This document shows, piece by piece, positions 1 through 54,083 of a stretch of 64,000 bases of DNA. The notes beneath the pieces are model-generated. The model ran no database searches, had not been told where the DNA came from, and saw only the letters and a program-made list of their open reading frames with translations. Both the position numbers and the translations under genes were made by a program. The DNA lies in the NCBI GenBank assembly GCA_020628865.1, contig JAHDEJ010000026.1, positions 1 to 64,000 on the forward strand. The letters run 5' to 3'. Position 1 is the first letter of the stretch; the number at the start of each line of letters is the position of its first letter. Source of the DNA: Acidimicrobiales bacterium. Its GTDB lineage: Bacteria > Actinomycetota > Acidimicrobiia > Acidimicrobiales > SHLQ01.

Positions 1-746
1 GTGCCCATGATTGCCCAACTGACGCCGAGGTCTTCCAGCAGTTGGTAGGGCAGCTCGGGCGATGGCCGCACGATCACGTCGAACCCGTCGAGCGTGCCCC
101 GCTCGTCGACAACCAGATCCATCGCTGCGCGAAGGGTGGCCTCGGTGACTTCGATCGGGTACAGCCCGTCGTACCGAGCGGCTCGCCGCACCGGCTTGCG
201 GGCTCCGCCGCGGGACGCGAACCACATCGGGATTCGGGGCTGCTGAACCGGCCGAGGAAGCACGGTGACCTTGTCGGCCATGAAGTGCGTTCCGTGGAAG
301 TCGACTTCTTCGCCAGACCACATCTGGACCAGCAACTCGACGCCCTCGTCGAGGCGGTCGCCTCGTTCCCGTGCGTCGACGACCTCGCCGAAGGCGCTGA
401 GCTCACGAGTTGTGTCCACGCCCAGGCCGAGCCCGAGCGTGAGCCGTCCGCCCGACAGGTGATCGAGCGTGGTGCACTCACGAGCCAGCTTGATCGGCCG
501 ACGCCTGGTGATCGGCGTGACCATCGGGCCGAGGCGGACTCGCTCCGTCGCCACCGCCATGGCGGCCATGGCCACCCACGGATCGGCCGTCTCCTGCGGA
601 TCGCCCCGGCGACGAAGCACATGGTCCCAGAGAAAGACCGCGTCCCACCCGGCCTTCTCAGCGGCGACCGAGAGTTCGACGAGCGCCGACGGGTCCGCCA
701 GTTCGCCGTAGGGCGGAATGGTGAGTGCGTGTTTCATCACACCCAT
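1..746 (-). CDS. LLM-class (luciferase-like) flavin/F420 oxidoreductase, 3'-truncated by window edge
   Basis: The frame opens at ATG 746 (MGVMKHALTIPPYGEL) or at an in-frame ATG 737 and runs off the left edge without a stop, so about 248 residues are visible. The pattern is that of luciferase-like TIM-barrel oxidoreductases: 'AAEKAGWDAVFLWDH' near residue 30, 'ERVRLGPMVTP' around 70, and 'LDHLSGGRLTLGLG' near 95. Many actinobacterial members use coenzyme F420, but nothing visible proves F420 over FMN. No clear Shine-Dalgarno precedes either ATG. It is followed upstream by a small VOC gene on the same strand (47-base gap), which may be co-transcribed. The substrate is unknown. Confidence 0.85.
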   Translation of the reverse strand, partial: MGVMKHALTIPPYGELADPSALVELSVAAEKAGWDAVFLWDHVLRRRGDPQETADPWVAMAAMAVATERVRLGPMVTPITRRRPIKLARECTTLDHLSGGRLTLGLGLGVDTTRELSAFGEVVDARERGDRLDEGVELLVQMWSGEEVDFHGTHFMADKVTVLPRPVQQPRIPMWFASRGGARKPVRRAARYDGLYPIEVTEATLRAAMDLVVDERGTLDGFDVIVRPSPELPYQLLEDLGVSWAIMG

Positions 747-41325: not shown

Positions 41326-44300
41326 TCAGTTGGCCAGCCGCTCCATGATGGAGGCCACGAGCTCGTCGACCCCGTGGGGACCCACGATGCAGGTCTCCTC
41401 CGGTTGGTAGTGCGACCCTTCGATGGTCACGACGTCCAGCTCGCCGATCGGTTCCTGCAACGCCGTCCATGGCTCGACCGTCAGTGCGGTTCCGGTTTCG
41501 CTCGCGGCGATGTAGAGGATCGGCACATCGAGGGGCTGCGGGCGATAGCCGGCGGCCGCTCGGCGGATGACCGGGCCGAGATGTCGTTCCGCATCGGCCA
41601 TGTCGGGCGTCGCGCCCTTGTCGCGTGACGTGCGATAGCGACGACGGGCGAGACCGAACTCGGCGCGCTCCCGCAAACGGCCGAATCCCTCGTCGAGGAC
41701 GCCTCGTACACCCTGTTCTTCGAACAGGTCCGCATACTTCTCCATCGGGGTCCGGGTCTCGTCGGTGCTCATGCCCGCCATGAGCGTGTCGATCAGGCAG
41801 ACCAGCTCGACCTCGTCGCCCCGCTCCTGCAGGAGTCGGGCGATCTCCCAGGCGAGCAGGCCGCCGGTGGACCAGCCGACGAGCCGGTAGGGCCCCTCGG
41901 TCATCGTGCTGTCGATGGCGTCGAGCATGGCCGCCGCCTGCGCATCGATGCCTTCGACGGTTGCGCTTCGAGCGTCGGCACCGGGAAGACGGATGCCGAC
42001 GACCGGGATCGATCGATTGAGGGTCCGGACGAGCGGCGCGTACCGCAGCAGGTTTCCGCCGCCAGGCGGCAACATGATGAGCGGCGGCTCGTCGCCGGCG
42101 GACCGGAGCCACTCGACGAGACCGGCGTTCTCATGAGATGCCGGTTGGCGATCGGCAGCGACGATCGGTTCGACCGCCGCGGATGGCTCGTCGGACGGTG
42201 CCGGAGCTTCCTCGTCAGCGTCCTCGGCATCCGGCCGGCGACGGCGAGTCCAACGGCTCAGCGCACCGCCTGCGTCGGGCGATGCATCGGCGTCGTCAAC
42301 CACAACCTCGGGTGCAGACTCCTCAGGCGCAGGCGCAGCGATCTCAGCCGTCACCTCGGCCTCTTCGGCGGGGGCCGGGTCGGAGATCGCCGGGACAGCG
42401 GCGGGCGAGGCATCGTTCGAGCCGGAGGCCGGACGGAGTCGATCGGCGATCTCCGACGGCGTCGGTGCGTCGATCAACTCACCGATGGCGATCCGTCGCC
42501 CGAACGCGGTCTCGAGCAGCCCGACCAATTCGACCGCTCGAAGCGAGTCGCCGCCCATGTCGAAGAAGTCGTCATGCTCGGCCACCGGTCGTCCGTCGAA
42601 GCTCTGCGACCACAACGCAATGACCCGACGGAGCGTCGCATCGATCTCCGGCTCGACTGCGGGCTCAGCGACATCAGTATCCGATTCGACGTCGACGCCC
42701 TGTTGCGCTGCGGCGGGGATCGGCGGCGGCGTCACCAGCGCCGAGAGGGCCGAGCGATCGACCTTCCCGTTGCGCGTTCGGGGAAGCTGCTCGACGACCG
42801 AAACCGACGATGGCACGTGTGTGGGCGGAAGAAGTTCGGCAACGAGTCGCCGGAGGGCTTCGCCGTCCGCATCGTCCGCCTCGACCCAGCCCCGGAGTCG
42901 CCCATCGACGACGCCGACGGCTGCTGCGGCAACACCGGGCACCCGCAACAGCGTGTGTTCGACCTCGCCGGGTTCGATCCGGACGCCGCCGACCGACAAC
43001 TGATCGTCGATTCGTCCGAGGAATTCCAACACGCCATCGGCACGTTCCACGACCCGATCTCCGGTGCGGTAGGCGTGTTCGCCGTCGATGTCCGTGAATC
43101 CACCGGAGTCGACGTCGCCGAGGTAGCCGGACGACACCGTCGGGCCCAGCAGGATGAGTTCACCAGGCACGTTGGCCGGCACCTGCGTACCGTCTTCGGC
43201 CTCGATGCGGACTCGGACGCCGGGAATCGGCGCTCCGATCGGCACGGTGCCGGACGGCGAATCGTCGCAGCGATGAGCGGTCGCCCAGACGGTCGCCTCG
43301 GTCGGGCCGTACTCGTTCACGAGAGCAACGCCGGACGTGAGCTCGTGGTGACGACGGACGAGGTCGGGCGGGCACGCTTCCCCCGCCACGATGATCGTTT
43401 CGAGCGCCGGCAGCGCATCGCCGTGCCGCTGCAGCATGGCCCCGTACAAGGAGGGAACACACAGGGTGTGGGACGGCCTGGCGTCGGCGATCAGATGGAG
43501 CAGCGCGTCCACGTCGTGCACTTCGGCTTCGGTCGGCACCACCAGTTCGCCGCCGTCGGCGAGCGTCCAGAAGATGCCGGCGACCGACGAGTCGAATCCG
43601 GCGCTCGAGACGAGCAGATAGCTTCGGACCTCGTCGGCGTACCACTGCCGTCGGGCAGCGAGCGATGAGGCCAGGTTCGCGTGGGAGATGGACACGCCCT
43701 TCGGCCGTCCGGTGGATCCCGAGGTGAAGATGACGTACGCCTCGTCGTCGACGCTCGTGGGATGCGGACGGGCGGGCGGCAGAACGGCAGGATCGACCGC
43801 ATCCACGTCGACCCGGACCACATCATGCAGACCCTCGTGACCCGTCGAATCGGTCACGACAGCGGAGACGGCCGCACCGGCCATCAGCTCGGCAACCCGA
43901 GCCGGCGGCTGGCTCACGTCGACCGGCACGTACGAGGCACCGAGCATCCAGATGGCACGGATCGCCACCACAAGTTCCGTGGACCGAGCGAGCACGACAC
44001 CAACCCGATCTCCCGGCATCACACCCACGGCCCGGAGCCGGCCGGCGAGCGCTCCCGCTGCCTCGGCCACCTCGGCATGCGTTCGGCTGCGTTCACCGCA
44101 ACGAACGGCGGCTCGGTCCGCCGACGCCTGAGCGGCTGCGTCCAACAGCTGCGGAACGAGGACGGGCTCGCGGACGAGTTCGACCGTTGGCCGGACGCCG
44201 ACACGCGCAACGGAGGCCACGGAGTCGGCCGGCCGTTCGACGGCTGCGCCGAGCGCGACTGCGAACGCATCGAGCATCTCGGTTGCGGCGGCACGACCAA

Positions 44301-47300
44301 TCGTCTCGCCCCGGTACTCGCAACCGAGCTCCACGAGCTGTCCGCGGATCTGCACGAAGAAGGTCGCATCGTTCACCGATGCGCCGGAGGCGAGCGTGGC
44401 GTGATGGACGACCTCGCCGTCCAAGGCCGCGGGGGCGACGTCCTCGAAGGCGAGCATGATCCCGGCGCCAGGCTCGGAAACGCCGCGCGCACGGGCGGCC
44501 GCCACGAGGTCGGCGAAGGGGACGGTGCGTCGCTCGAGCGCCAACGCAAGCGAATCATGGACCTGCTCCGACAGGGCCATCAGCGATGACGCCGGATCGA
44601 CGTCGACGAGCATCGGCAGCGGGTTGACGAAGTAGCCGACCAGATCGGAGACCGAAGGATGATCGCGTACGGATCCGGCGATCGAGACCTCGAAGCGACG
44701 GTCGTCGTGCCACGGAGCCATCGCTGCGGAAAGCGCCGTGAGCAGCGTGGTGAACGTTGTGGTGTCGGCGGCGGCACGCAAACGGTCGGCGGTCACCGGC
44801 GCGACGGCGTCGATGAAGCCGTCGGGTTCGCCACCGGGCGGCAGCACCTGGACGCGGCCGGGTTCGGGGTCCCCGGGCTGCAGCCACATGTCGTCGAGCG
44901 AGGGTCGGTTCGCCCGCATCCACGCGCCGTGTTCCGCATAGCTGACCGGCAGGTGCGGAAGCTGGCCACCCCGGTAGGCCACATCGATCTGCTCCCAGAG
45001 CGAGTCCAGCGAGCTCGCGTCGCTGACGATGTGGTGCGCACGGATGAGCACGGCGCTCAGACCGCGGTCCGGTTCCCAGTCGGAAGCGAGATGGTGCACC
45101 GTCATCAACGGTCCATTGATGAGGTCGAACTGTTGGCGGTTCAGCTGATCGGCGAGCTGACGCAACGACGCGTGCTCGCTCGACGCCTCGCCGATACGGC
45201 ATGCCACGTCGATGGGGAGTTCCGACCGGTGCGAGCCGTACGAGGTACGCAGGGTGGGCTGGTGCTGGACAACGGCACGAACAGCGGCGTCGAACCGCTC
45301 ACGGTCGTAGCCCCCGGGGAGGTAGTAGAGCCGAGCGACGTTGTAGCGAAGGTCGGCCGGGTTCAACCGCCACTCGTAGAGCATCGAGGCTTCGCCGGGG
45401 CTGAGCGGACGCTCGCCGTCCAACGTCGGGATCTCCAATTCGGCGGCGGGTGCGGAATCCGGGTCCGCGGCGAGGGCCTCGACCGCCGAGGCCAGGTCCG
45501 CGACCGTTCGATGGGTGAAGGCCAACGACTCGTTCACCTTCACGCCGCACACCTGGCTCACCCGAACGATCATCTCCAGCGCGTGCAGCGACGTGCCACC
45601 GAGGGCGAAGAAGTCGTCGTTTGCGCCGACGGCGCCAAGACCGAGCACACCGGCCCAGACCGAAGCGATCTGCTGTTCGGTCGTGGTTTCCGGCAGACGG
45701 CCGGATGCCGCCGCGGAAACCGACCGACGCGAGGCCGGCGCAGGCAACGCCCCGGTGTCGACCTTGCCGTTGACGGTCAGCGGCACTTCATCGATGAGTT
45801 CGATCGCCTGCGGGTGCGCGTGTGCGGGGAGGAGGCGAACCAGTTCCGCCCGAACCTCGTCGATGTTCGGTTCGGCGCCAGCCTCTGCGGTGACCCAGAG
45901 GGTCAGCACTTCCGGCGGCTTCGGTTCGTACCCGACCTCCGCGAGCATCTCCGTGATCGAGGCGAGCTCCTGCTCGTCCATCGGATCGTCGAGTTCGAAC
46001 ATCGCTTCGTCTCGGGTCTTGTGCCCGAGACGCACATCCCAGCTGTACGGCAGGGCGTAGTTGTGGTGGGCCTGCTCAATCTTGTGCACGTAGATTCCGG
46101 CGGCGTTGATGAGACAGTTGGTCGAGCGGCCGGTGTCGTCGGGCCGTTCCCATGTGCCCGAGGACTCGAGCACCCGGTACATCTCCGAGAGCTCGACATC
46201 GACGTAGCGGTAGAAGTCGATGAAGGAGACACGATCGAAGATCTCGCCGTCCTGCAGGAAGTCGACGTCCATGTTCTCCGACACGGCGTCCGGGGTGCGG
46301 TGATAGATGCGCCGGGCTTCCGTGACCGCCACGTCGATCGAGTTCGGGTCGAACCGGTCGGTCTCGAACAGGCCGGGAACGAGACGTGTTTCGAAGAACT
46401 GGCCACGCGAGAGGCCGGTGACGATTGCCGGGATACCGAGGCGGTCGGCGCGCTCGAGTGCGATCGTGTAGATCGCCTTGTAACAGCCGTTGCACACGTT
46501 CGAGAACCGCTCGAGGCTGTCGCGGAAGATCTCGTTCATTGCCTCGACGGTGACGAACTCGTGGTCGACACCGAGCGCGGCGGTGGCTCGACGGACGTTG
46601 TCCTTTGCGCCGTCGGAGATGAATCCGTTGTCCAAGGTGATGGCGAGCACCCGGGCACCCATCTCGACCAGACGGTAGAGCGCGTACGTGGAGTCCTTGC
46701 CGCCGGAGAGCAGGTGGAGAACGTCGTAGTCGCCGGTGGAACGGGCGTTGGCCGCACGCAGTTCGCGATGGAGGTCGTCCTCGCTGCGGAACCACGCCGC
46801 TGCCTGCGGAGCCACGACGTCGTACTCATGACAACTGGTGCACACACCATCGGCGTCGACGACGATGCCCGGAACGTCGGAACCGAGTCCGCACCGAACG
46901 CAGTGGTCGATGCGTTGGTTCCGGTCCGGCATCCACAGGCCGGCGACGGCAGCGTCGATGCCGGGGATGGAACGGGCGGCGGCTTCGATCTCGCCCGGTT
47001 CGAGGCGGACGCCACGCACCTTGATCTGGTGGTCGACACGGCCGAGATACACCATGCGTTCCGAGTCGAGCATGCGGACGCGATCGCCGGTCCGGTAGAC
47101 GATGTCGTGGTTTCCGGTCGCCGGACGGCTGCCGAACTTCTCCGCGTTCAGGTCGTCGCGTCCGAGGTAGCCGGCGGTCATTCCCGGACGGCTGATGTAG
47201 AGCTCACCCTCAGCGCCCAGCGGCACGGGATGTCCGGCGTCGTCGAGGATGTGCAGTGCGACGCCGGGAGCGTTGTGGCCGATCGGCACCTCCGGCCCAC

Positions 47301-49494
47301 CATCGTGTTCCGGCGAGTAGCGGTGCAGCATGCAACCCACGACCGCTTCCGTCGGACCGTACTCGTTCCAGATCGCCGTGTCGGAACCGCAGGACAGCAG
47401 GATGCGGTCCGCCAGCTCCGTCATGAACGCTTCGCCACCAACGATGAGGCCACGCAACGGATGGGACGGCTCGATCATGCGGACGAGGAGTTCGAGGTGG
47501 GACGGCGTCGCCTTCATCAGCGTCACCACGTTGTCTTCGACAATCTCGCGCAGTGCAGGCAGACCGCCGTCGGGGTGCACCGTCATCGCGCCGCCGGAGA
47601 TGAAGGGCAGGAAGAGCGTGGTGATCGTGAGATCGAAGCTGAGCGACGTGTAGAGCGGCATCGTCGGGGCGGTGTCGCCGACGTAGGACGCGAGCGCAAA
47701 GCCGAGGTACTCGCGCAGCCCGCCGTGTGTGATCGGAACACCCTTTGGCAGACCGGTCGAACCCGACGTGTAGATCACGTATGCGAGATCGTCGCTGTCG
47801 ACGGGGCGCAGGTCGACGCCGTCGACGGCGTCCAGCGCGTCCAGGTCGGCGAGTGAGGTCAGGGTGATCGCCGCACGCGAGTCTTCGCGGATGTGATCGC
47901 GTCGTACCTCGGGGTACGTGGGGTCGATCGGCACGAACGCCGCGCCGGCGCGGAGAACACCGTGGATGGCGACGACGGCGTCGGTCGAGATCGGGATTTC
48001 GATGCCGACGCGTGCGCCGGGGCCGATGCCGGCTGAGCGGAGGCGGTCGGCGACGGCCTCGATGCGTTCATCGAGTTCCCTGCCCGACACGGCGACGCCG
48101 CGCTCGGTGAGAACGACTCGGTCGCCGGCCACGGCGAGAAACTCGGCCACGAGGTGGGGAGCGGCCGCAGGGAGCGGCTGGCCAGGGGCCGGGTGGGTGA
48201 AGGACGCAACGTCCTCCACGTCCTCGTCGGTGGCCAGACCGAAGCCGTCGAGCCTGGCGTCCGGGTTGTCCAACATGGCGTCGAGGACGGCGCCGAAGTG
48301 TGCGCCGGCACGTTCCCGGTGGATGGGTCCGGCGATGGCGTGGTTGAGGTCGAGGCCGAGCTGCAGTTCGCCGCTGCCGTCGTAGTCGAGCGCCTGCACA
48401 CGCAGGCGGTGATGCGAGTCGATGTGGCCGGGGTGAATCCAGGTGGTGGTCGTCGGCATGTCGCCGAACGAACCGAATGTGGCCGACACGTTGTTGAGCA
48501 CGACATCGAAGTTCTGCCGCGGACTCGTTCCCGGCTGGGCGTGACGGAGCATCTCGAAGACGGCGGCCGACGTCCGTTCCTGAAGTCGGGCGAAGGTGTC
48601 GTCCCGCTCGATCTCGATCGTCACCGGGAAGAGTTCGACGAGCGGCCCGATGGCCGTCTTCGAGCGCCGCGATGTCCGGTGGTGGATCGGCATGCCGATC
48701 GTGACGCGGTCCGATCCGTTCAGCCGGTGCAGGTAGCAGGCGATGACGGTGGCGAGCGCAACGGACTGGGAAAGGTCTTCGCTGAGCAGCCGAAATCGAT
48801 CGGCGAGGAGCGCGTCGAAGCGGGACTGCCGATGTCCGTGCAGCGGGACGTTGACACGATCGGCGAGGGTCGTGGCCTCGGCCTCGGGCTGATAGAAGCC
48901 GGTCGGTTCAACGACCGCCGTCTGTTCTGCCCAGTGGGCGGCGGCCTTCTGCCAGCGCTTCGTCTCTTGCGTTGCGTCGAGTTCGGCCGTCAGCTCTTCG
49001 AAGGACATGCCGGGCGTGTAGCTGCCGAGATAGGCGGCGGCCACGCTCTGGAAGATGAGGGCGGAGCTGGCGGCATCGGTGGCGATGTGGTGCACGTTGA
49101 ACCACCAGGACCACCGACCGGAACCGTGCTGGAGAAGCACGGAGTCGTAGACGGATTCGGCCGGGTCGAGCGGCGTCGCAATCCGGTCCCGGACCCACGC
49201 TTCGGTCTCGTCCGCATCGAGTTCGAGCACTGCGGTGGTCGAGGTGGCCGTGGCGGCAACCGACGGATGTGGCACGCCATCGACTTCACGAATCCGCATT
49301 CGGAGCGCATCGCTGGAGCGGACGACCTCGTCGACCGCAGCGACGAACCGTTCCGGGTCGATGTCGCCCGTGAATCGGGAGAGGTTCGCCATGTTCGCCA
49401 GCGGCACATCCGGGTGCAGACGCTGCGACGTCCAGATCAGTTCCTGGGCAGCTGTCAGCGTGCGTCGCGGATGGAGATGGACCGATTGCGACAT
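41326..49494 (-). CDS. Nonribosomal peptide synthetase C-A(ATP-PPase)-T-C-A-T-TE
   Basis: A 2,722-residue dimodular synthetase. Order: C1 (about 8-440, HHxxxDA at H135); A1 (455-840, 'TSGSTGLPKG' at 576, 'NEYGPTE' near 709); an inserted zinc-ribbon and PP-loop ATP-pyrophosphatase domain (about 855-1190, SGGKDS 930-935); the A1 tail with catalytic Lys1244 in 'NGKVD'; T1 (Ser1302); C2 (HHIVSDA at H1487); A2 ('TSGSTGRPKG' at 1924, Lys2244); T2 (Ser2317); a disordered Pro/Ala/Glu linker (about 2400-2500); and a type I thioesterase with Ser2542 in 'GWSTGG', Asp in 'CLIDT' and His in 'GSHY'. All catalytic motifs are intact. Pocket residues read about DLTKIGEVGK for A1 (asparagine-like) and DSALIAEVWK for A2 (no confident match). 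C1 at the N-terminus implies an upstream donor, presumably the adjacent carrier protein. The ATG is one base after the carrier-protein stop. Confidence 0.95.
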   Translation of the reverse strand: MSQSVHLHPRRTLTAAQELIWTSQRLHPDVPLANMANLSRFTGDIDPERFVAAVDEVVRSSDALRMRIREVDGVPHPSVAATATSTTAVLELDADETEAWVRDRIATPLDPAESVYDSVLLQHGSGRWSWWFNVHHIATDAASSALIFQSVAAAYLGSYTPGMSFEELTAELDATQETKRWQKAAAHWAEQTAVVEPTGFYQPEAEATTLADRVNVPLHGHRQSRFDALLADRFRLLSEDLSQSVALATVIACYLHRLNGSDRVTIGMPIHHRTSRRSKTAIGPLVELFPVTIEIERDDTFARLQERTSAAVFEMLRHAQPGTSPRQNFDVVLNNVSATFGSFGDMPTTTTWIHPGHIDSHHRLRVQALDYDGSGELQLGLDLNHAIAGPIHRERAGAHFGAVLDAMLDNPDARLDGFGLATDEDVEDVASFTHPAPGQPLPAAAPHLVAEFLAVAGDRVVLTERGVAVSGRELDERIEAVADRLRSAGIGPGARVGIEIPISTDAVVAIHGVLRAGAAFVPIDPTYPEVRRDHIREDSRAAITLTSLADLDALDAVDGVDLRPVDSDDLAYVIYTSGSTGLPKGVPITHGGLREYLGFALASYVGDTAPTMPLYTSLSFDLTITTLFLPFISGGAMTVHPDGGLPALREIVEDNVVTLMKATPSHLELLVRMIEPSHPLRGLIVGGEAFMTELADRILLSCGSDTAIWNEYGPTEAVVGCMLHRYSPEHDGGPEVPIGHNAPGVALHILDDAGHPVPLGAEGELYISRPGMTAGYLGRDDLNAEKFGSRPATGNHDIVYRTGDRVRMLDSERMVYLGRVDHQIKVRGVRLEPGEIEAAARSIPGIDAAVAGLWMPDRNQRIDHCVRCGLGSDVPGIVVDADGVCTSCHEYDVVAPQAAAWFRSEDDLHRELRAANARSTGDYDVLHLLSGGKDSTYALYRLVEMGARVLAITLDNGFISDGAKDNVRRATAALGVDHEFVTVEAMNEIFRDSLERFSNVCNGCYKAIYTIALERADRLGIPAIVTGLSRGQFFETRLVPGLFETDRFDPNSIDVAVTEARRIYHRTPDAVSENMDVDFLQDGEIFDRVSFIDFYRYVDVELSEMYRVLESSGTWERPDDTGRSTNCLINAAGIYVHKIEQAHHNYALPYSWDVRLGHKTRDEAMFELDDPMDEQELASITEMLAEVGYEPKPPEVLTLWVTAEAGAEPNIDEVRAELVRLLPAHAHPQAIELIDEVPLTVNGKVDTGALPAPASRRSVSAAASGRLPETTTEQQIASVWAGVLGLGAVGANDDFFALGGTSLHALEMIVRVSQVCGVKVNESLAFTHRTVADLASAVEALAADPDSAPAAELEIPTLDGERPLSPGEASMLYEWRLNPADLRYNVARLYYLPGGYDRERFDAAVRAVVQHQPTLRTSYGSHRSELPIDVACRIGEASSEHASLRQLADQLNRQQFDLINGPLMTVHHLASDWEPDRGLSAVLIRAHHIVSDASSLDSLWEQIDVAYRGGQLPHLPVSYAEHGAWMRANRPSLDDMWLQPGDPEPGRVQVLPPGGEPDGFIDAVAPVTADRLRAAADTTTFTTLLTALSAAMAPWHDDRRFEVSIAGSVRDHPSVSDLVGYFVNPLPMLVDVDPASSLMALSEQVHDSLALALERRTVPFADLVAAARARGVSEPGAGIMLAFEDVAPAALDGEVVHHATLASGASVNDATFFVQIRGQLVELGCEYRGETIGRAAATEMLDAFAVALGAAVERPADSVASVARVGVRPTVELVREPVLVPQLLDAAAQASADRAAVRCGERSRTHAEVAEAAGALAGRLRAVGVMPGDRVGVVLARSTELVVAIRAIWMLGASYVPVDVSQPPARVAELMAGAAVSAVVTDSTGHEGLHDVVRVDVDAVDPAVLPPARPHPTSVDDEAYVIFTSGSTGRPKGVSISHANLASSLAARRQWYADEVRSYLLVSSAGFDSSVAGIFWTLADGGELVVPTEAEVHDVDALLHLIADARPSHTLCVPSLYGAMLQRHGDALPALETIIVAGEACPPDLVRRHHELTSGVALVNEYGPTEATVWATAHRCDDSPSGTVPIGAPIPGVRVRIEAEDGTQVPANVPGELILLGPTVSSGYLGDVDSGGFTDIDGEHAYRTGDRVVERADGVLEFLGRIDDQLSVGGVRIEPGEVEHTLLRVPGVAAAAVGVVDGRLRGWVEADDADGEALRRLVAELLPPTHVPSSVSVVEQLPRTRNGKVDRSALSALVTPPPIPAAAQQGVDVESDTDVAEPAVEPEIDATLRRVIALWSQSFDGRPVAEHDDFFDMGGDSLRAVELVGLLETAFGRRIAIGELIDAPTPSEIADRLRPASGSNDASPAAVPAISDPAPAEEAEVTAEIAAPAPEESAPEVVVDDADASPDAGGALSRWTRRRRPDAEDADEEAPAPSDEPSAAVEPIVAADRQPASHENAGLVEWLRSAGDEPPLIMLPPGGGNLLRYAPLVRTLNRSIPVVGIRLPGADARSATVEGIDAQAAAMLDAIDSTMTEGPYRLVGWSTGGLLAWEIARLLQERGDEVELVCLIDTLMAGMSTDETRTPMEKYADLFEEQGVRGVLDEGFGRLRERAEFGLARRRYRTSRDKGATPDMADAERHLGPVIRRAAAGYRPQPLDVPILYIAASETGTALTVEPWTALQEPIGELDVVTIEGSHYQPEETCIVGPHGVDELVASIMERLAN
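45925..46932 (-). other. ATP-pyrophosphatase (PP-loop) domain inserted in adenylation domain 1
   Basis: Residues about 855-1190 of the synthetase. It opens with a zinc ribbon, C865-x2-C868 ('CVRC') and C885-x2-C888 ('CTSC'), then 'DVLHLLSGGKDSTYALYRL' with the N-type PP-loop, 'LAITLDNGFISDGA', a third pair C1001-x2-C1004 ('CNGC'), 'IPAIVTGLSRGQFFETRL' and 'STNCLIN'. The layout matches N-acetyl-sugar amidotransferase (WbpG/PseA)-type and TtcA-like alpha-hydrolases, which adenylate a substrate oxygen before an amide or sulfur transfer. It sits between the A8 region ('YLGRVDHQIKVRG') and the A10 Lys, where other synthetases carry methyltransferase inserts. Confidence 0.9.
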
Positions 49495-51297: not shown

Positions 51298-51459
51298 CGG
51301 TTGAACTCCATGCCAGATTCGCGCATCCGCACGTCGCCTTCGTGGCGAAGAAGCGGACATGAGGGTGCAGTGGCGAGGGTGTGAAATTGCATATCTGACC
51401 GTGTGTGGTACTCGTGGCTCGTCGGGCGTCGTGCCCGCACGTTGGAAGGTACGTTGCGA

Positions 51460-52698
51460 ATGAGCGTTTCAGATGCGACAAATGCATCACCGGTGTCCAC
51501 TGGCGACGCCGAGCCGCCGCGCTTGCTGTCCGGCGCCGAATCGATCCTGGAAGCGCTGATCGACGTCGACCATCCCCGGAAGGTCGCAGCATCCCGATGG
51601 GCGGCGGAACATCTCACCGACCCGTCCCTTGCGGAGCGGGACCACAGCTGCACGTTCTGGGCCGAGGGCTGGAAGCGGCTCGCCGATCGCGGCATGTTCG
51701 GACTGCTCGCCGACGAGCGCCACGGTGGCCAGAACCTCGAACTGTGTGCCGCCCTCCTCACGATCGAAGGACTCGGCCACGGTTGCCGTGACGAGGGCCT
51801 GATTTTCGCCATGAGCTCCCAGGTGCTGACCATGCAGCTCACGCTCCAACGATTCGGATCAAAGGATCAGCAGGATCGGTGGATGCCGCACCTCCTGAGC
51901 GGCGATGCGTTCGGCGCCTTCGCAATGACCGAACCCAACTCGGGATCCGACGCATACTCCCTTTCCACCACCGCGGAGCGCACCTCCGAGGGCTACGTCC
52001 TGAATGGCGAGAAGGCGTGGATCACAATGGCCCCGCTCGCCGACGTGTTCGTCGTGTTCGCAACGGTCAACCCGGACGTCGGCCGGTGGGGCATCACCTC
52101 GTTCCTCGTCCCCGGCGACACCCCAGGCCTGATCGTCGGCCCGAACATGCCCAAGTCCGGCATGCGGACGACGCCGTTCGCCAACGTTCGCTTCGAGAAC
52201 TGCGCGATCCCCGAATCGGCCCGCATCGGGGCCGAAGGCGCCGGCGCAAGCATGTTCTCCTCCGCCATGGAGGCCGAGCGCGGTTTCCTTCTCGCCAGCG
52301 GTGTCGGCGCACTCCAACGAGTGCTCGAAGACACGGTCGAGTTCGCCAGCTCTCGCGAACAGTTCGGTCAGGCGATCGGTGCCTTCCAGGGCGTGTCGCA
52401 CCCCATCGCCGAGATCAAACTCGCCCATGAATCCGCCCGGCTGCTGCTCTACAAAGCCGCAGCGCTCCAACAACGCGGCGACGCCTCCATGATGGCGGCG
52501 GCGCTCGCAAAACTCGGTGCTTCCGAGGCCGTACTCAGCGGTTCCCTGACCTCACTCGAGGTGCATGGAGCCCGCGGCTACGTCACCGAATACGAAGTCG
52601 AGCGCGAAGTCCGCAACGCGCTCGGCGGCGTGATCTATGGCGGCTCGTCCGCCATCCAGAAAAACATCATCGCCCGACTCCTCGGGCTCCCCGGCTGA
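51460..52698 (+). CDS. Acyl-CoA dehydrogenase-family enzyme of the peptide locus
   Basis: A 412-residue flavoprotein of the acyl-CoA dehydrogenase family. 'AFAMTEPNSGSDAYSLSTTAE', 'LNGEKAWITMAPLADVFVVFA', 'REQFGQAIGAFQGVSHPIAEIK' and 'VHGARGYVTEYEVEREVRNALGG' are typical. In the C-terminal motif the usual EGT/GGTxEIQ reads 'IYGGSSAIQKNIIA', so no Glu is present there. Its head-to-head placement with the adenylation gene (162-base gap) suggests it oxidises the carrier-bound starter, as PltE oxidises prolyl-S-PCP. The start at MSVSDAT is supported by GGAAGG; an in-frame GTG lies 57 bases upstream. Confidence 0.9.
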   Translation: MSVSDATNASPVSTGDAEPPRLLSGAESILEALIDVDHPRKVAASRWAAEHLTDPSLAERDHSCTFWAEGWKRLADRGMFGLLADERHGGQNLELCAALLTIEGLGHGCRDEGLIFAMSSQVLTMQLTLQRFGSKDQQDRWMPHLLSGDAFGAFAMTEPNSGSDAYSLSTTAERTSEGYVLNGEKAWITMAPLADVFVVFATVNPDVGRWGITSFLVPGDTPGLIVGPNMPKSGMRTTPFANVRFENCAIPESARIGAEGAGASMFSSAMEAERGFLLASGVGALQRVLEDTVEFASSREQFGQAIGAFQGVSHPIAEIKLAHESARLLLYKAAALQQRGDASMMAAALAKLGASEAVLSGSLTSLEVHGARGYVTEYEVEREVRNALGGVIYGGSSAIQKNIIARLLGLPG

Positions 52699-52703
52699 AA
52701 GTG

Positions 52704-54083
52704 ATGCAAACCGTGAATACAGACCCCCGCCAAGAAGCCAAGAAGGTGCGCCGGATACGGCTGCTCCTCGTGGCAACGCTCATCCCACTGTTTGGATGGG
52801 CGTTCACCAGCGCCGCCTCGGCCCACGACGGCACGAGCAGCGTGATCTTCCTCGACATCTACCCGGATGGAACGGTCGAGGGGCAGGTCGAGCATCCCTA
52901 TGCGCTCCTCAACGAGGAGTTCGGCTTCGAACTCGACCCGGACACCTCGACCGAAGATGACGTCGCCGCCACGAACATCATCATGAAGGACTTCAACACC
53001 CAGAGCCTCATGATCGAGATGGACGGCGAACTGTGGCCCATCACCTTCACGGACACCGAGGTCGTCCCCACGGAGAACACCACCTACGCGGGCTACAACT
53101 TCGTCGTCGACCGAGTCTTCGATGAAGCGCCCCGAATCTTCGACGTGACCTACTCGGGCATCTTCGACACCCGGGCCGGCCACAGCGGTTTCGTCACGAT
53201 CCGCACCGACCCGGTGACCGGCACGTTCCTCAACGAGGCCGACTTCCAGCCGGACCTCATGTCGTCGAACGATCCGACCACCAGCGTCAACCTGGACGAC
53301 CCCAACACGATGGCCGCCCTTCGAGGCACGATCTGGCTCGGTATGGAGCACATCTTCATCGGCACGGACCACATCCTGTTCGTGCTCGTGCTCCTGCTCC
53401 CCGCCGTGATGCTCTTCTCGCTCGCCGGCGGCTGGAAGCCCGTACCCGACTTCAAGTCCGGCCTCTGGCGGGTCCTGAAGATCGCCACGATGTTCACGAT
53501 CGCCCACTCCATCACGCTCACGCTTGGCGGCCTGGAGATCATCGAGCTACCCGGGAAGTTCGTCGAGACGGTGATTGCGCTGTCGATCATCGCGGCGGCG
53601 TTCCACAACCTGAAACCGATCTTCGCCAACCAGGAGCACATGATCGCCTTCGCCTTCGGCATCTTCCATGGCTTCGGATTCGCCGGCCTGCTCTCCGACC
53701 TCGGCGTCGGTCGCGGTCAGCGTCTGCTGTCGCTCTTCGGCTTCAACCTCGGCGTCGAGATCGGTCAGGCGTTCATCATCCTGCTCCTGTTCCCGGCCCT
53801 GTACCTGCTGCGCCGCACCGTCTACTACCCGATGATCATCAAGGTCGGCTCGATGCTGCTCGCACTCGTCGCCGCCATCTGGGCGATCGAGCGCATCTTC
53901 GAGACGTCGCTGGGCATCGACGACATCCTCGAGAAGTTCACCCGGGCTCCACGCGTCTTCGTGCTGATCGCGATCGTCACGGCAATCGCCGCCGCGGTCC
54001 GTCAGGTCGAGGACACTCGAGGCCAACTGATCTCCGTCGAGGACGGCGCATCAGACGACCAGGAGTTCGCCGGAATCCGCTGA
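52704..54083 (+). CDS. HupE/UreJ-family membrane protein
   Basis: A 459-residue exported membrane protein. A signal-like segment ends at 'ASAHDG', a roughly 170-residue extracytoplasmic domain follows, then a HupE/UreJ-type region with 'GMEHIFIGTDHILFVLVLLLP', 'FTIAHSITLTLGG', 'GIFHGFGFAGLL' and 'FNLGVEIGQAF', whose His and Asp residues could bind metal. About seven transmembrane segments are present. HupE and UreJ are linked to nickel or cobalt entry; this long form occurs without hydrogenase or urease genes here. It starts five bases after the dehydrogenase stop, so the two are likely co-transcribed. Confidence 0.88.
   Translation: MQTVNTDPRQEAKKVRRIRLLLVATLIPLFGWAFTSAASAHDGTSSVIFLDIYPDGTVEGQVEHPYALLNEEFGFELDPDTSTEDDVAATNIIMKDFNTQSLMIEMDGELWPITFTDTEVVPTENTTYAGYNFVVDRVFDEAPRIFDVTYSGIFDTRAGHSGFVTIRTDPVTGTFLNEADFQPDLMSSNDPTTSVNLDDPNTMAALRGTIWLGMEHIFIGTDHILFVLVLLLPAVMLFSLAGGWKPVPDFKSGLWRVLKIATMFTIAHSITLTLGGLEIIELPGKFVETVIALSIIAAAFHNLKPIFANQEHMIAFAFGIFHGFGFAGLLSDLGVGRGQRLLSLFGFNLGVEIGQAFIILLLFPALYLLRRTVYYPMIIKVGSMLLALVAAIWAIERIFETSLGIDDILEKFTRAPRVFVLIAIVTAIAAAVRQVEDTRGQLISVEDGASDDQEFAGIR

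What the first reader, a model, noticed from the sequence alone, without database searches (positions are those of the whole stretch)
46932..47790. The adenylation domain with the ATP-PPase insert has an asparagine-like pocket
Seen: aligning A1 by eye to GrsA gives D-L-T-K-I-G-E-V-G plus the A10 Lys, from 'FDLTIT', 'LMKATP', 'LIVGGE', 'NEYGPTE' and 'EAVVG'. Known: the published asparagine code is DLTKLGEVGK and aspartate is DLTKVGHIGK. Inference: A1 takes Asn (or Asp), whose side-chain amide or acid is exactly what an ATP-PPase would act on: Asp to Asn, Asn to thioasparagine, or Asn to beta-cyanoalanine. The pairing makes a cis-acting side-chain chemistry plausible.
Basis: partly seen in the sequence, partly recalled or inferred. 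Interest (0 to 1): 0.75.

Follow-up and report, generated by a model that had tools for sequence, protein, structure and literature searches.

The report
Asparagine-to-nitrile domain inside an NRPS
A bacterial peptide-making enzyme has a pocket for asparagine with a second catalytic domain spliced into it that probably turns the asparagine side chain into a nitrile, as in the antibiotics albicidin and cystobactamid; the pairing is already published, but the gene cluster around it seems uncharacterised and its possible metal centre can be tested.

Summary
A1 of the 2722-aa NRPS (C-A1[insert]-T-C-A2-T-TE) aligns to GrsA as DLTKIGEVG plus the A10 Lys. Of 98 rows with a whole pocket (window and relatives), 97 read DL[TS]K[IV]GE[VI]G, although A1 cores from different phyla are only about 42% identical. 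Position 322 is always Glu (Asn-like), never His (Asp-like).

The pairing is not new. AlbIV (albicidin) and CysH (cystobactamid) carry this kind of insert; CysH was shown in print to turn bound Asn into beta-cyanoalanine or isoasparagine, and its homologues were reported as all lying in Asn-coded A domains. CysH-like inserts from two cystobactamid-like clusters are 47-48% identical to this one and branch among its relatives. I read it as an AMDH domain making beta-cyanoalanine in cis, here in a chain-elongating module rather than a stand-alone one.

Two things go further. Seven cysteines are invariant in 103 of 103 inserts; three fit the CxxC...C ligand pattern of [4Fe-4S] PP-loop enzymes, which could explain the brown colour of CysH. 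And the cluster (prolyl-type starter genes, HupE, this NRPS) recurs across many phyla, product unknown.

The parts
41326..49494 (-). NRPS, 2722 aa, C-A1[insert]-T-C-A2-T-TE
   Evidence: ORF; Pfam; motif positions
48205..49461 (-). C1 condensation domain (aa 12-430), HHIATD motif
   Evidence: Pfam PF00668
46990..48132 (-). A1 core with pocket DLTKIGEVG (aa 455-835)
45910..46917 (-). Insert, AMDH-type PP-loop (alpha-ANH) domain, aa 860-1195: ribbon cysteines, SGGKDS (46690-46707), VCNGCYK (46477-46497), STNCLIN with the third Cys (46105-46125)
   Evidence: TIGR03573 102 bits; alignment; model; folds; tree
45760..45909 (-). Rest of the A1 C-terminal subdomain with A10 motif LTVNGKVD, Lys1244
45484..45675 (-). 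T1 carrier domain (FALGGTSL)
   Evidence: Pfam PF00550
44185..45342 (-). C2 condensation domain (approximate limits)
   Evidence: Pfam
42739..44142 (-). A2, pocket DSACIAEVW, substrate not assigned
42427..42627 (-). T2 carrier domain (FDMGGDSL)
   Evidence: Pfam
41329..42084 (-). TE thioesterase domain
   Evidence: Pfam PF00975
49502..49744 (-). Stand-alone carrier protein (PCP), 81 aa
49741..51360 (-). Stand-alone adenylation enzyme; an L-proline--PCP ligase (6o6e) is its best solved relative outside multidomain NRPSs
51403..52698 (+). Acyl-CoA-dehydrogenase-like enzyme closest to prolyl-carrier-protein dehydrogenases (4irn; RedW/PigA models)
52701..54083 (+). HupE/UreJ_2 membrane protein, conserved neighbour

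Best explanation
A1 selects L-Asn and loads it on T1. The insert, in the A8-A9 loop, is an AMDH-type PP-loop domain. It binds the side-chain carboxamide of T1-bound Asn, activates its oxygen with ATP (inferred: adenylation, PPi leaving), and the activated amide loses AMP to give the nitrile, so beta-cyanoalanyl-T1 is made in cis. A starter, probably pyrrole-2-carbonyl or dehydroprolyl made on the stand-alone carrier protein by the prolyl-type ligase and dehydrogenase, is joined by C1; module 2 adds one more residue and the TE releases the product. Shown here: pocket code, homology, conservation, cluster. Shown by others for CysH: Asn loading and dehydration. Inferred: everything specific to this protein, including the adenylate, the starter and the order of steps.
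For: Pocket DLTKIGEVG in place, and 97 of 98 complete rows keep the Asn-type code, the last being DMTKIGEVA. A10 Lys and carrier Ser invariant in 60 of 60 aligned modules. Two unnamed Myxococcota hold A-insert-T modules, one of them (L128) scanned and found among a cystobactamid-like gene set (TauD, chorismate-binding/GATase, O-methyltransferase, TE, A-T-C-A-T-TE); both carry the same code and an insert 47-48% identical over 330 aa; they branch inside a 95-row clade, support 100/99, that leaves out four stand-alone relatives. CysH turned bound Asn into a product 18 Da lighter only when AMDH was present, and AMDH homologues were reported as all inserted in Asn-coded A domains (PMC7966384). ATP-PPi exchange with Alb04 preferred Asn (PMC8949500 passages). 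No TauD-type hydroxylase among the 20 neighbouring ORFs scanned; in CysH lack of hydroxylation favours dehydration. Solved neighbours in fold include an N-acetyl sugar amidotransferase (8wex, Z 20.7) and nitrile synthetase ArtA (9lei, Z 10.7).
Against: No activity was measured for this protein or any close relative. Identity to the CysH-like inserts is under 50%. The sequence cannot separate beta-cyanoalanine from isoasparagine or another fate. The true CysH and AlbIV sequences were not obtained; the CysH-like ones are identified by context. Fold and 3-Cys motif are shared with sulfur transferases, so the fold does not exclude thioamide chemistry.
Confidence: 0.65

Rival explanations
1. The insert acts mainly as the asparaginyl aminomutase: bound Asn becomes isoasparagine, so the chain continues with the rearranged residue.
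For: AMDH of CysH makes both products (PMC7966384).
Against: In CysH isomerisation is efficient mainly after hydroxylation by CysJ; no TauD-type gene among 20 neighbouring ORFs scanned. The same paper says that no albicidin with isoasparagine is known.
Confidence: 0.15
2. The insert makes thioasparagine: a [4Fe-4S]-bound sulfide attacks the activated amide.
For: The CxxC...C pattern and the fold are those of TtuA/NcsA/LarE sulfur transferases.
Against: CysH dehydrates Asn in vitro, and its relatives here have the same cysteines. No sulfur-carrier gene was seen among the 20 ORFs scanned.
Confidence: 0.08
3. The insert makes an amidine from the Asn amide with ammonia, like the N-acetyl sugar amidotransferases.
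For: Best family (TIGR03573, 102 bits) and best fold (8wex, Z 20.7).
Against: Half the family's cut-off of 203 bits. No glutamine amidotransferase partner among the scanned neighbours. The sugar-locus WbuX of L029 lacks the equivalents of Cys142 and Cys268. CysH makes a nitrile.
Confidence: 0.05
4. The code is inherited and the insert is structural or inactive; plain Asn is incorporated.
For: Code conservation alone can come from common descent of one module.
Against: SGGKDS, seven cysteines and in all 60 columns of the insert are invariant in 70 aligned inserts that are 51-77% identical to the window's, which an inactive domain would hardly keep.
Confidence: 0.05

Closest known systems
CysH AMDH domain, cystobactamid (PMC7966384; abstract, passages and part 2 of section 7 read)
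   Same: PP-loop domain with SGGKD inserted in an Asn-specific A domain; Asn on the carrier turned into beta-cyanoalanine or isoasparagine; CysH-like relatives here share code and all seven cysteines.
   Different: CysH is a stand-alone A-AMDH-T module whose product is shuttled by CysB and hydroxylated by CysJ. Here the module has its own C domain, sits in a two-module line, and its neighbours are prolyl-type starter genes and HupE. Insert identity to the CysH-like proteins 47-48%.
AlbIV/Alb04, albicidin (PMC8949500 and PMC12283262, passages)
   Same: 342-aa alpha-ANH insert; A domain prefers Asn; code DLTKIGEVGK linked to cyanoalanine.
   Different: Stand-alone A-T module acting in trans for an inactive A domain; sequence not obtained here, so identity not measured.
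N-acetyl sugar amidotransferase WbuX/TIGR03573, 8wex
   Same: Whole-length fold, PP-loop and, in the one WbuX aligned, the four-Cys ribbon.
   Different: Free enzyme of sugar loci; the insert scores under the family cut-off; the WbuX of locus L029 lacks the Cys142 and Cys268 equivalents.
NcsA, TtuA and LarE of T. maritima and M. maripaludis, [4Fe-4S] PP-loop enzymes (PMC10067955, PMC9283937, passages)
   Same: PP-loop, then CxxC, then a third Cys; further metal-binding cysteines in NcsA/TtuA.
   Different: They transfer sulfur to tRNA or to a nucleotide cofactor; the sequence alignment to the insert covers the PP-loop and CxxC but not the third Cys.

Membership tests
AMDH domain (CysH/AlbIV type) | Inserted in an A domain with an Asn-type code | tested here: met
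   Code DLTKIGEVG, insert between A8 and A9 strands
AMDH domain (CysH/AlbIV type) | SGGKD ATP-binding motif and full-length homology to CysH AMDH | tested here: met
   47-48% over 330 aa to two CysH-like proteins; same clade. CysH itself was not obtained, the stand-ins are identified by cluster context
AMDH domain (CysH/AlbIV type) | Asn dehydration or aminomutation on the carrier | not testable with these tools
   needs protein MS
AMDH domain (CysH/AlbIV type) | Stand-alone A-AMDH-T module (feature of the two characterised examples) | tested here: not met
   Here C-A-insert-T in a two-module line; a difference of architecture, not of the domain
N-acetyl sugar amidotransferase TIGR03573 | Score above the curated cut-off | tested here: not met
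   102 of 203.2 bits
Tri-Cys [4Fe-4S] PP-loop enzymes (TtuA/NcsA/LarE type) | CxxC plus a distant Cys after the PP-loop, conserved | tested here: met
   C142, C145, C268 in 103 of 103 inserts; PP-loop to CxxC 71 residues, 75 in the genome's own NcsA-like protein
Tri-Cys [4Fe-4S] PP-loop enzymes (TtuA/NcsA/LarE type) | Third Cys in the equivalent structural place | tested here: inconclusive
   Fold alignments reach past it (NcsA 44..300, LarE 44..270) but give no residue pairs; profile alignments stop before it
Tri-Cys [4Fe-4S] PP-loop enzymes (TtuA/NcsA/LarE type) | Bound cluster | not testable with these tools
   Dark brown colour reported for CysH only

The most novel reading that the evidence does not exclude
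The AMDH domain is a [4Fe-4S] enzyme: Cys142, Cys145 and Cys268 of the insert hold a cluster with one open iron, as in NcsA/TtuA, next to the ATP site, and this cluster takes part in making the nitrile (for example by holding the amide or the leaving group). This would account for the brown CysH that was left unexplained, and it would be a nitrile-forming [4Fe-4S] PP-loop enzyme built into an NRPS. In the window it works in line, within a widespread uncharacterised gene cluster whose predicted product joins a pyrrole- or dehydroproline-type starter to cyanoalanine.
Probability: 0.5. Interest if true: 0.68.

Novelty: new member of a known kind. Interest (0 to 1): 0.42.

Why it matters
It ties a guess about a pocket to a published enzyme class, shows in-line modules of that class in at least 14 phyla beside the two characterised stand-alone ones, and gives a concrete test (three cysteines) for a cofactor that the discoverers saw as a colour but could not assign. 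The conserved cluster is a target for finding nitrile-bearing peptides.

Tried and rejected
Paper searches that found nothing useful: ATP pyrophosphatase with thioamide and adenylation domain; interrupted adenylation domain with amidotransferase; nitrile synthetase with asparagine; adenine nucleotide alpha hydrolase with NRPS (one unrelated paper); the literal code DLTKLGEVGK. The last search, for cyanoalanine, pyrrole-2-carboxyl, nonribosomal peptide and HupE, at least two of four, listed 10 of 109 papers; none of those listed describes such a product in title or start of abstract, and in two of the three I opened cyanoalanine stands only in the reference list. I ran no dedicated search for an iron-sulfur cluster in AMDH, so I do not claim that it is unpublished.

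Considered and rejected: Asp activation (no His at 322); amidotransferase membership (below cut-off). The Streptomyces homologue on plasmid record NZ_CP108680.1 (L031) is a partial exception: it is a free domain fused to a C-like domain, not inside an A domain, and the A domain beside it reads, by eye only, DARHASLMT, not Asn-like, with asnB next door. It limits the rule to inserts that sit in an A domain. A2's code (DSACIAEVW) could not be assigned to an amino acid. hhalign of the insert profile with the genome's NcsA-like protein paired only the PP-loop part and, separately, the ribbon. The first code table was off by one residue and was replaced. A crude pattern found A10 in 93 of 100; the alignment of 60 modules shows the Lys in all. 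Stand-alone relative L125 gave no ORF with SGGKDS and was dropped; L131 was fetched and not used.

Full report
The gene. The finding lies in one long minus-strand ORF, window 41326-49494, 2722 aa. Pfam gives two condensation, two AMP-binding, two carrier and one thioesterase domain; motif positions give C1-A1[insert]-T1-C2-A2-T2-TE. The insert alone matches TIGR03573 (N-acetyl sugar amidotransferase) nearly end to end at 102 bits, under the curated 203, with weaker LarE and QueC matches.

The pocket. I placed A1 on GrsA by alignment rather than by eye. The pocket reads DLTKIGEVG, with Lys1244 of LTVNGKVD as the tenth residue.

Is it chance or family? A search of 297 genomes of the same order found 20 whole NRPS-borne inserts, the window's own included, and one partial one (221-766 bits); the next match is at 61 bits. 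In those 80 the insert follows the A1 core directly wherever the upstream part is on the contig. The table of codes has 101 rows: the window, 19 loci, two plasmid loci and 79 of the 80 (L074 has no A1 on its contig). Three rows are cut off. Of 98 complete, 97 read DL[TS]K[IV]GE[VI]G and one (L081) DMTKIGEVA. About ten rows are second copies of the same contig reached by two tools, so distinct loci are nearer 88. A1 cores of 15 representatives share a median of 42% identity. Seven of eight pocket columns measured are 98-100% conserved, against a median of 48%. The tree labels put these loci in 14 phyla. Common descent explains part of this, since the module is clearly one family; but a pocket so constant at 42% identity means that its substrate is under strong selection.

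What is already known. [quoted passage not shown] PMC8949500 (passages) reports that the Alb04 A domain prefers Asn in ATP-PPi exchange. PMC7966384 (abstract, passages and part 2 of section 7) is the central paper: the CysH insert, named AMDH, dehydrates carrier-bound Asn to beta-cyanoalanine in vitro or gives isoasparagine, and its homologues were all in A domains predicted for Asn.

Is this insert an AMDH? Two unnamed Myxococcota genomes hold a 1004/1036-aa A-insert-T protein. In one of them (L128) Pfam finds beside it a TauD oxygenase, an A-T-C-A-T-TE NRPS, an O-methyltransferase, a thioesterase and a chorismate-binding/GATase fusion, which is the make-up expected of a cystobactamid cluster (expectation partly recalled); L129 shows the same order by eye. 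Their inserts are 47-48% identical to the window's over 330 aa, have the same code and cysteines, and fall inside a clade of 95 rows, support 100/99, made of the A-domain-borne inserts and the free Streptomyces domain L031, apart from four stand-alone relatives (long branches are a caution there). I file the window's insert as an AMDH-type domain by homology; activity is untested.

Fold and cysteines. The model of the insert has mean pLDDT 90.7, that of A1-insert-T 90.2; there the insert sits between two strands of the small A subdomain, between A8 and A9. Foldseek and VIA-align put the amidotransferase 8wex first (Z 20.7, 309 residues), then TtuA, NcsA, [4Fe-4S] LarE and NAD synthetases (Z about 11-12) and nitrile synthetase ArtA (Z 10.7). 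All seven cysteines of the insert are present in 103 of 103 inserts: four in an N-terminal ribbon, then C142-x2-C145 and C268. K147 is invariant in the 70 aligned inserts. NcsA holds a [4Fe-4S] with Cys142, Cys145 and Cys233 (PMC10067955 passages); T. maritima LarE uses a CxxC-C set and is brownish (PMC9283937 passages). The profile aligns both CxxC cysteines with the [4Fe-4S] LarE of M. maripaludis, 8cnz. CysH was dark brown, and its authors set aside a radical mechanism because they saw no CxxCxxxC motif. A non-radical 3-Cys cluster was not discussed in what I read. Against over-reading: the third Cys was not matched residue by residue, and the six stand-alone relatives aligned also keep all seven cysteines, so the set is not special to AMDH; the sugar-locus WbuX of L029 lacks at least two of the three.

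Mechanism. PP-loop enzymes adenylate carbonyl oxygens, and the amidotransferases of this fold activate an amide and add ammonia (recalled superfamily knowledge). A nitrile needs only loss of AMP from the activated primary amide. I therefore prefer adenylation to the phosphorylation proposed for albicidin (as told in PMC7966384 and PMC8949500). No TauD-type hydroxylase is among the 20 neighbouring ORFs scanned, and in CysH the lack of hydroxylation favours dehydration, so beta-cyanoalanine is the likelier product.

The cluster. Upstream of the NRPS lie a carrier protein and an adenylation enzyme, and divergent from them a dehydrogenase closest to prolyl-carrier-protein dehydrogenases (4irn, 327 bits) and a HupE/UreJ_2 protein. 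In 32 loci with full flanks: adenylation enzyme 23, dehydrogenase 25, HupE 26, carrier protein 28; adenylation enzyme, dehydrogenase and HupE together 20, none of these three 2 (bit-score thresholds mine). The 32 are those of the 80 loci long enough, not a random sample. Prolyl specificity rests on the kinship of the ligase and dehydrogenase; pocket codes of 51 such ligases vary. The product is unknown to me.

Verdict. Observation confirmed, interpretation supported, kind already known. What remains of interest is the in-line architecture, the breadth of the cluster, and the testable metal centre.

Noticed in passing
window 52701-54083: A HupE/UreJ_2 membrane protein lies by this NRPS in 26 of 32 full-flank loci across phyla; its role (metal uptake, export, other) is unknown.
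   Followed up: partly
window 42739-44142: The A2 pocket is also very constant: DS[AV]xIAEVW in 16 of 19 two-module loci, V or M for I in the other three; I could not assign an amino acid.
   Followed up: partly
L031 18062-22112 (plasmid NZ_CP108680.1, Streptomyces): A 39-41% identical PP-loop domain stands free of any A domain, fused to a C-like domain, next to asnB, an A-T protein with a non-Asn code and an amino acid racemase.
   Followed up: partly
L119, L120, L123, L124, L126, L127: Stand-alone WbuX-like PP-loop proteins that keep all seven cysteines: possible unrecognised [4Fe-4S] enzymes.
   Followed up: no
L077, L079, L095 (Microvirga), L080 (Gemmatimonadetes): ORFs of about 1000 aa with A1 and insert but no C domain found, the CysH/AlbIV architecture, in other phyla.
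   Followed up: no
L029 13404-14516: In the Roseovarius and Pseudohalocynthiibacter plasmid copies a methyltransferase gene sits between the ligase and the dehydrogenase; none was seen there in the window.
   Followed up: no
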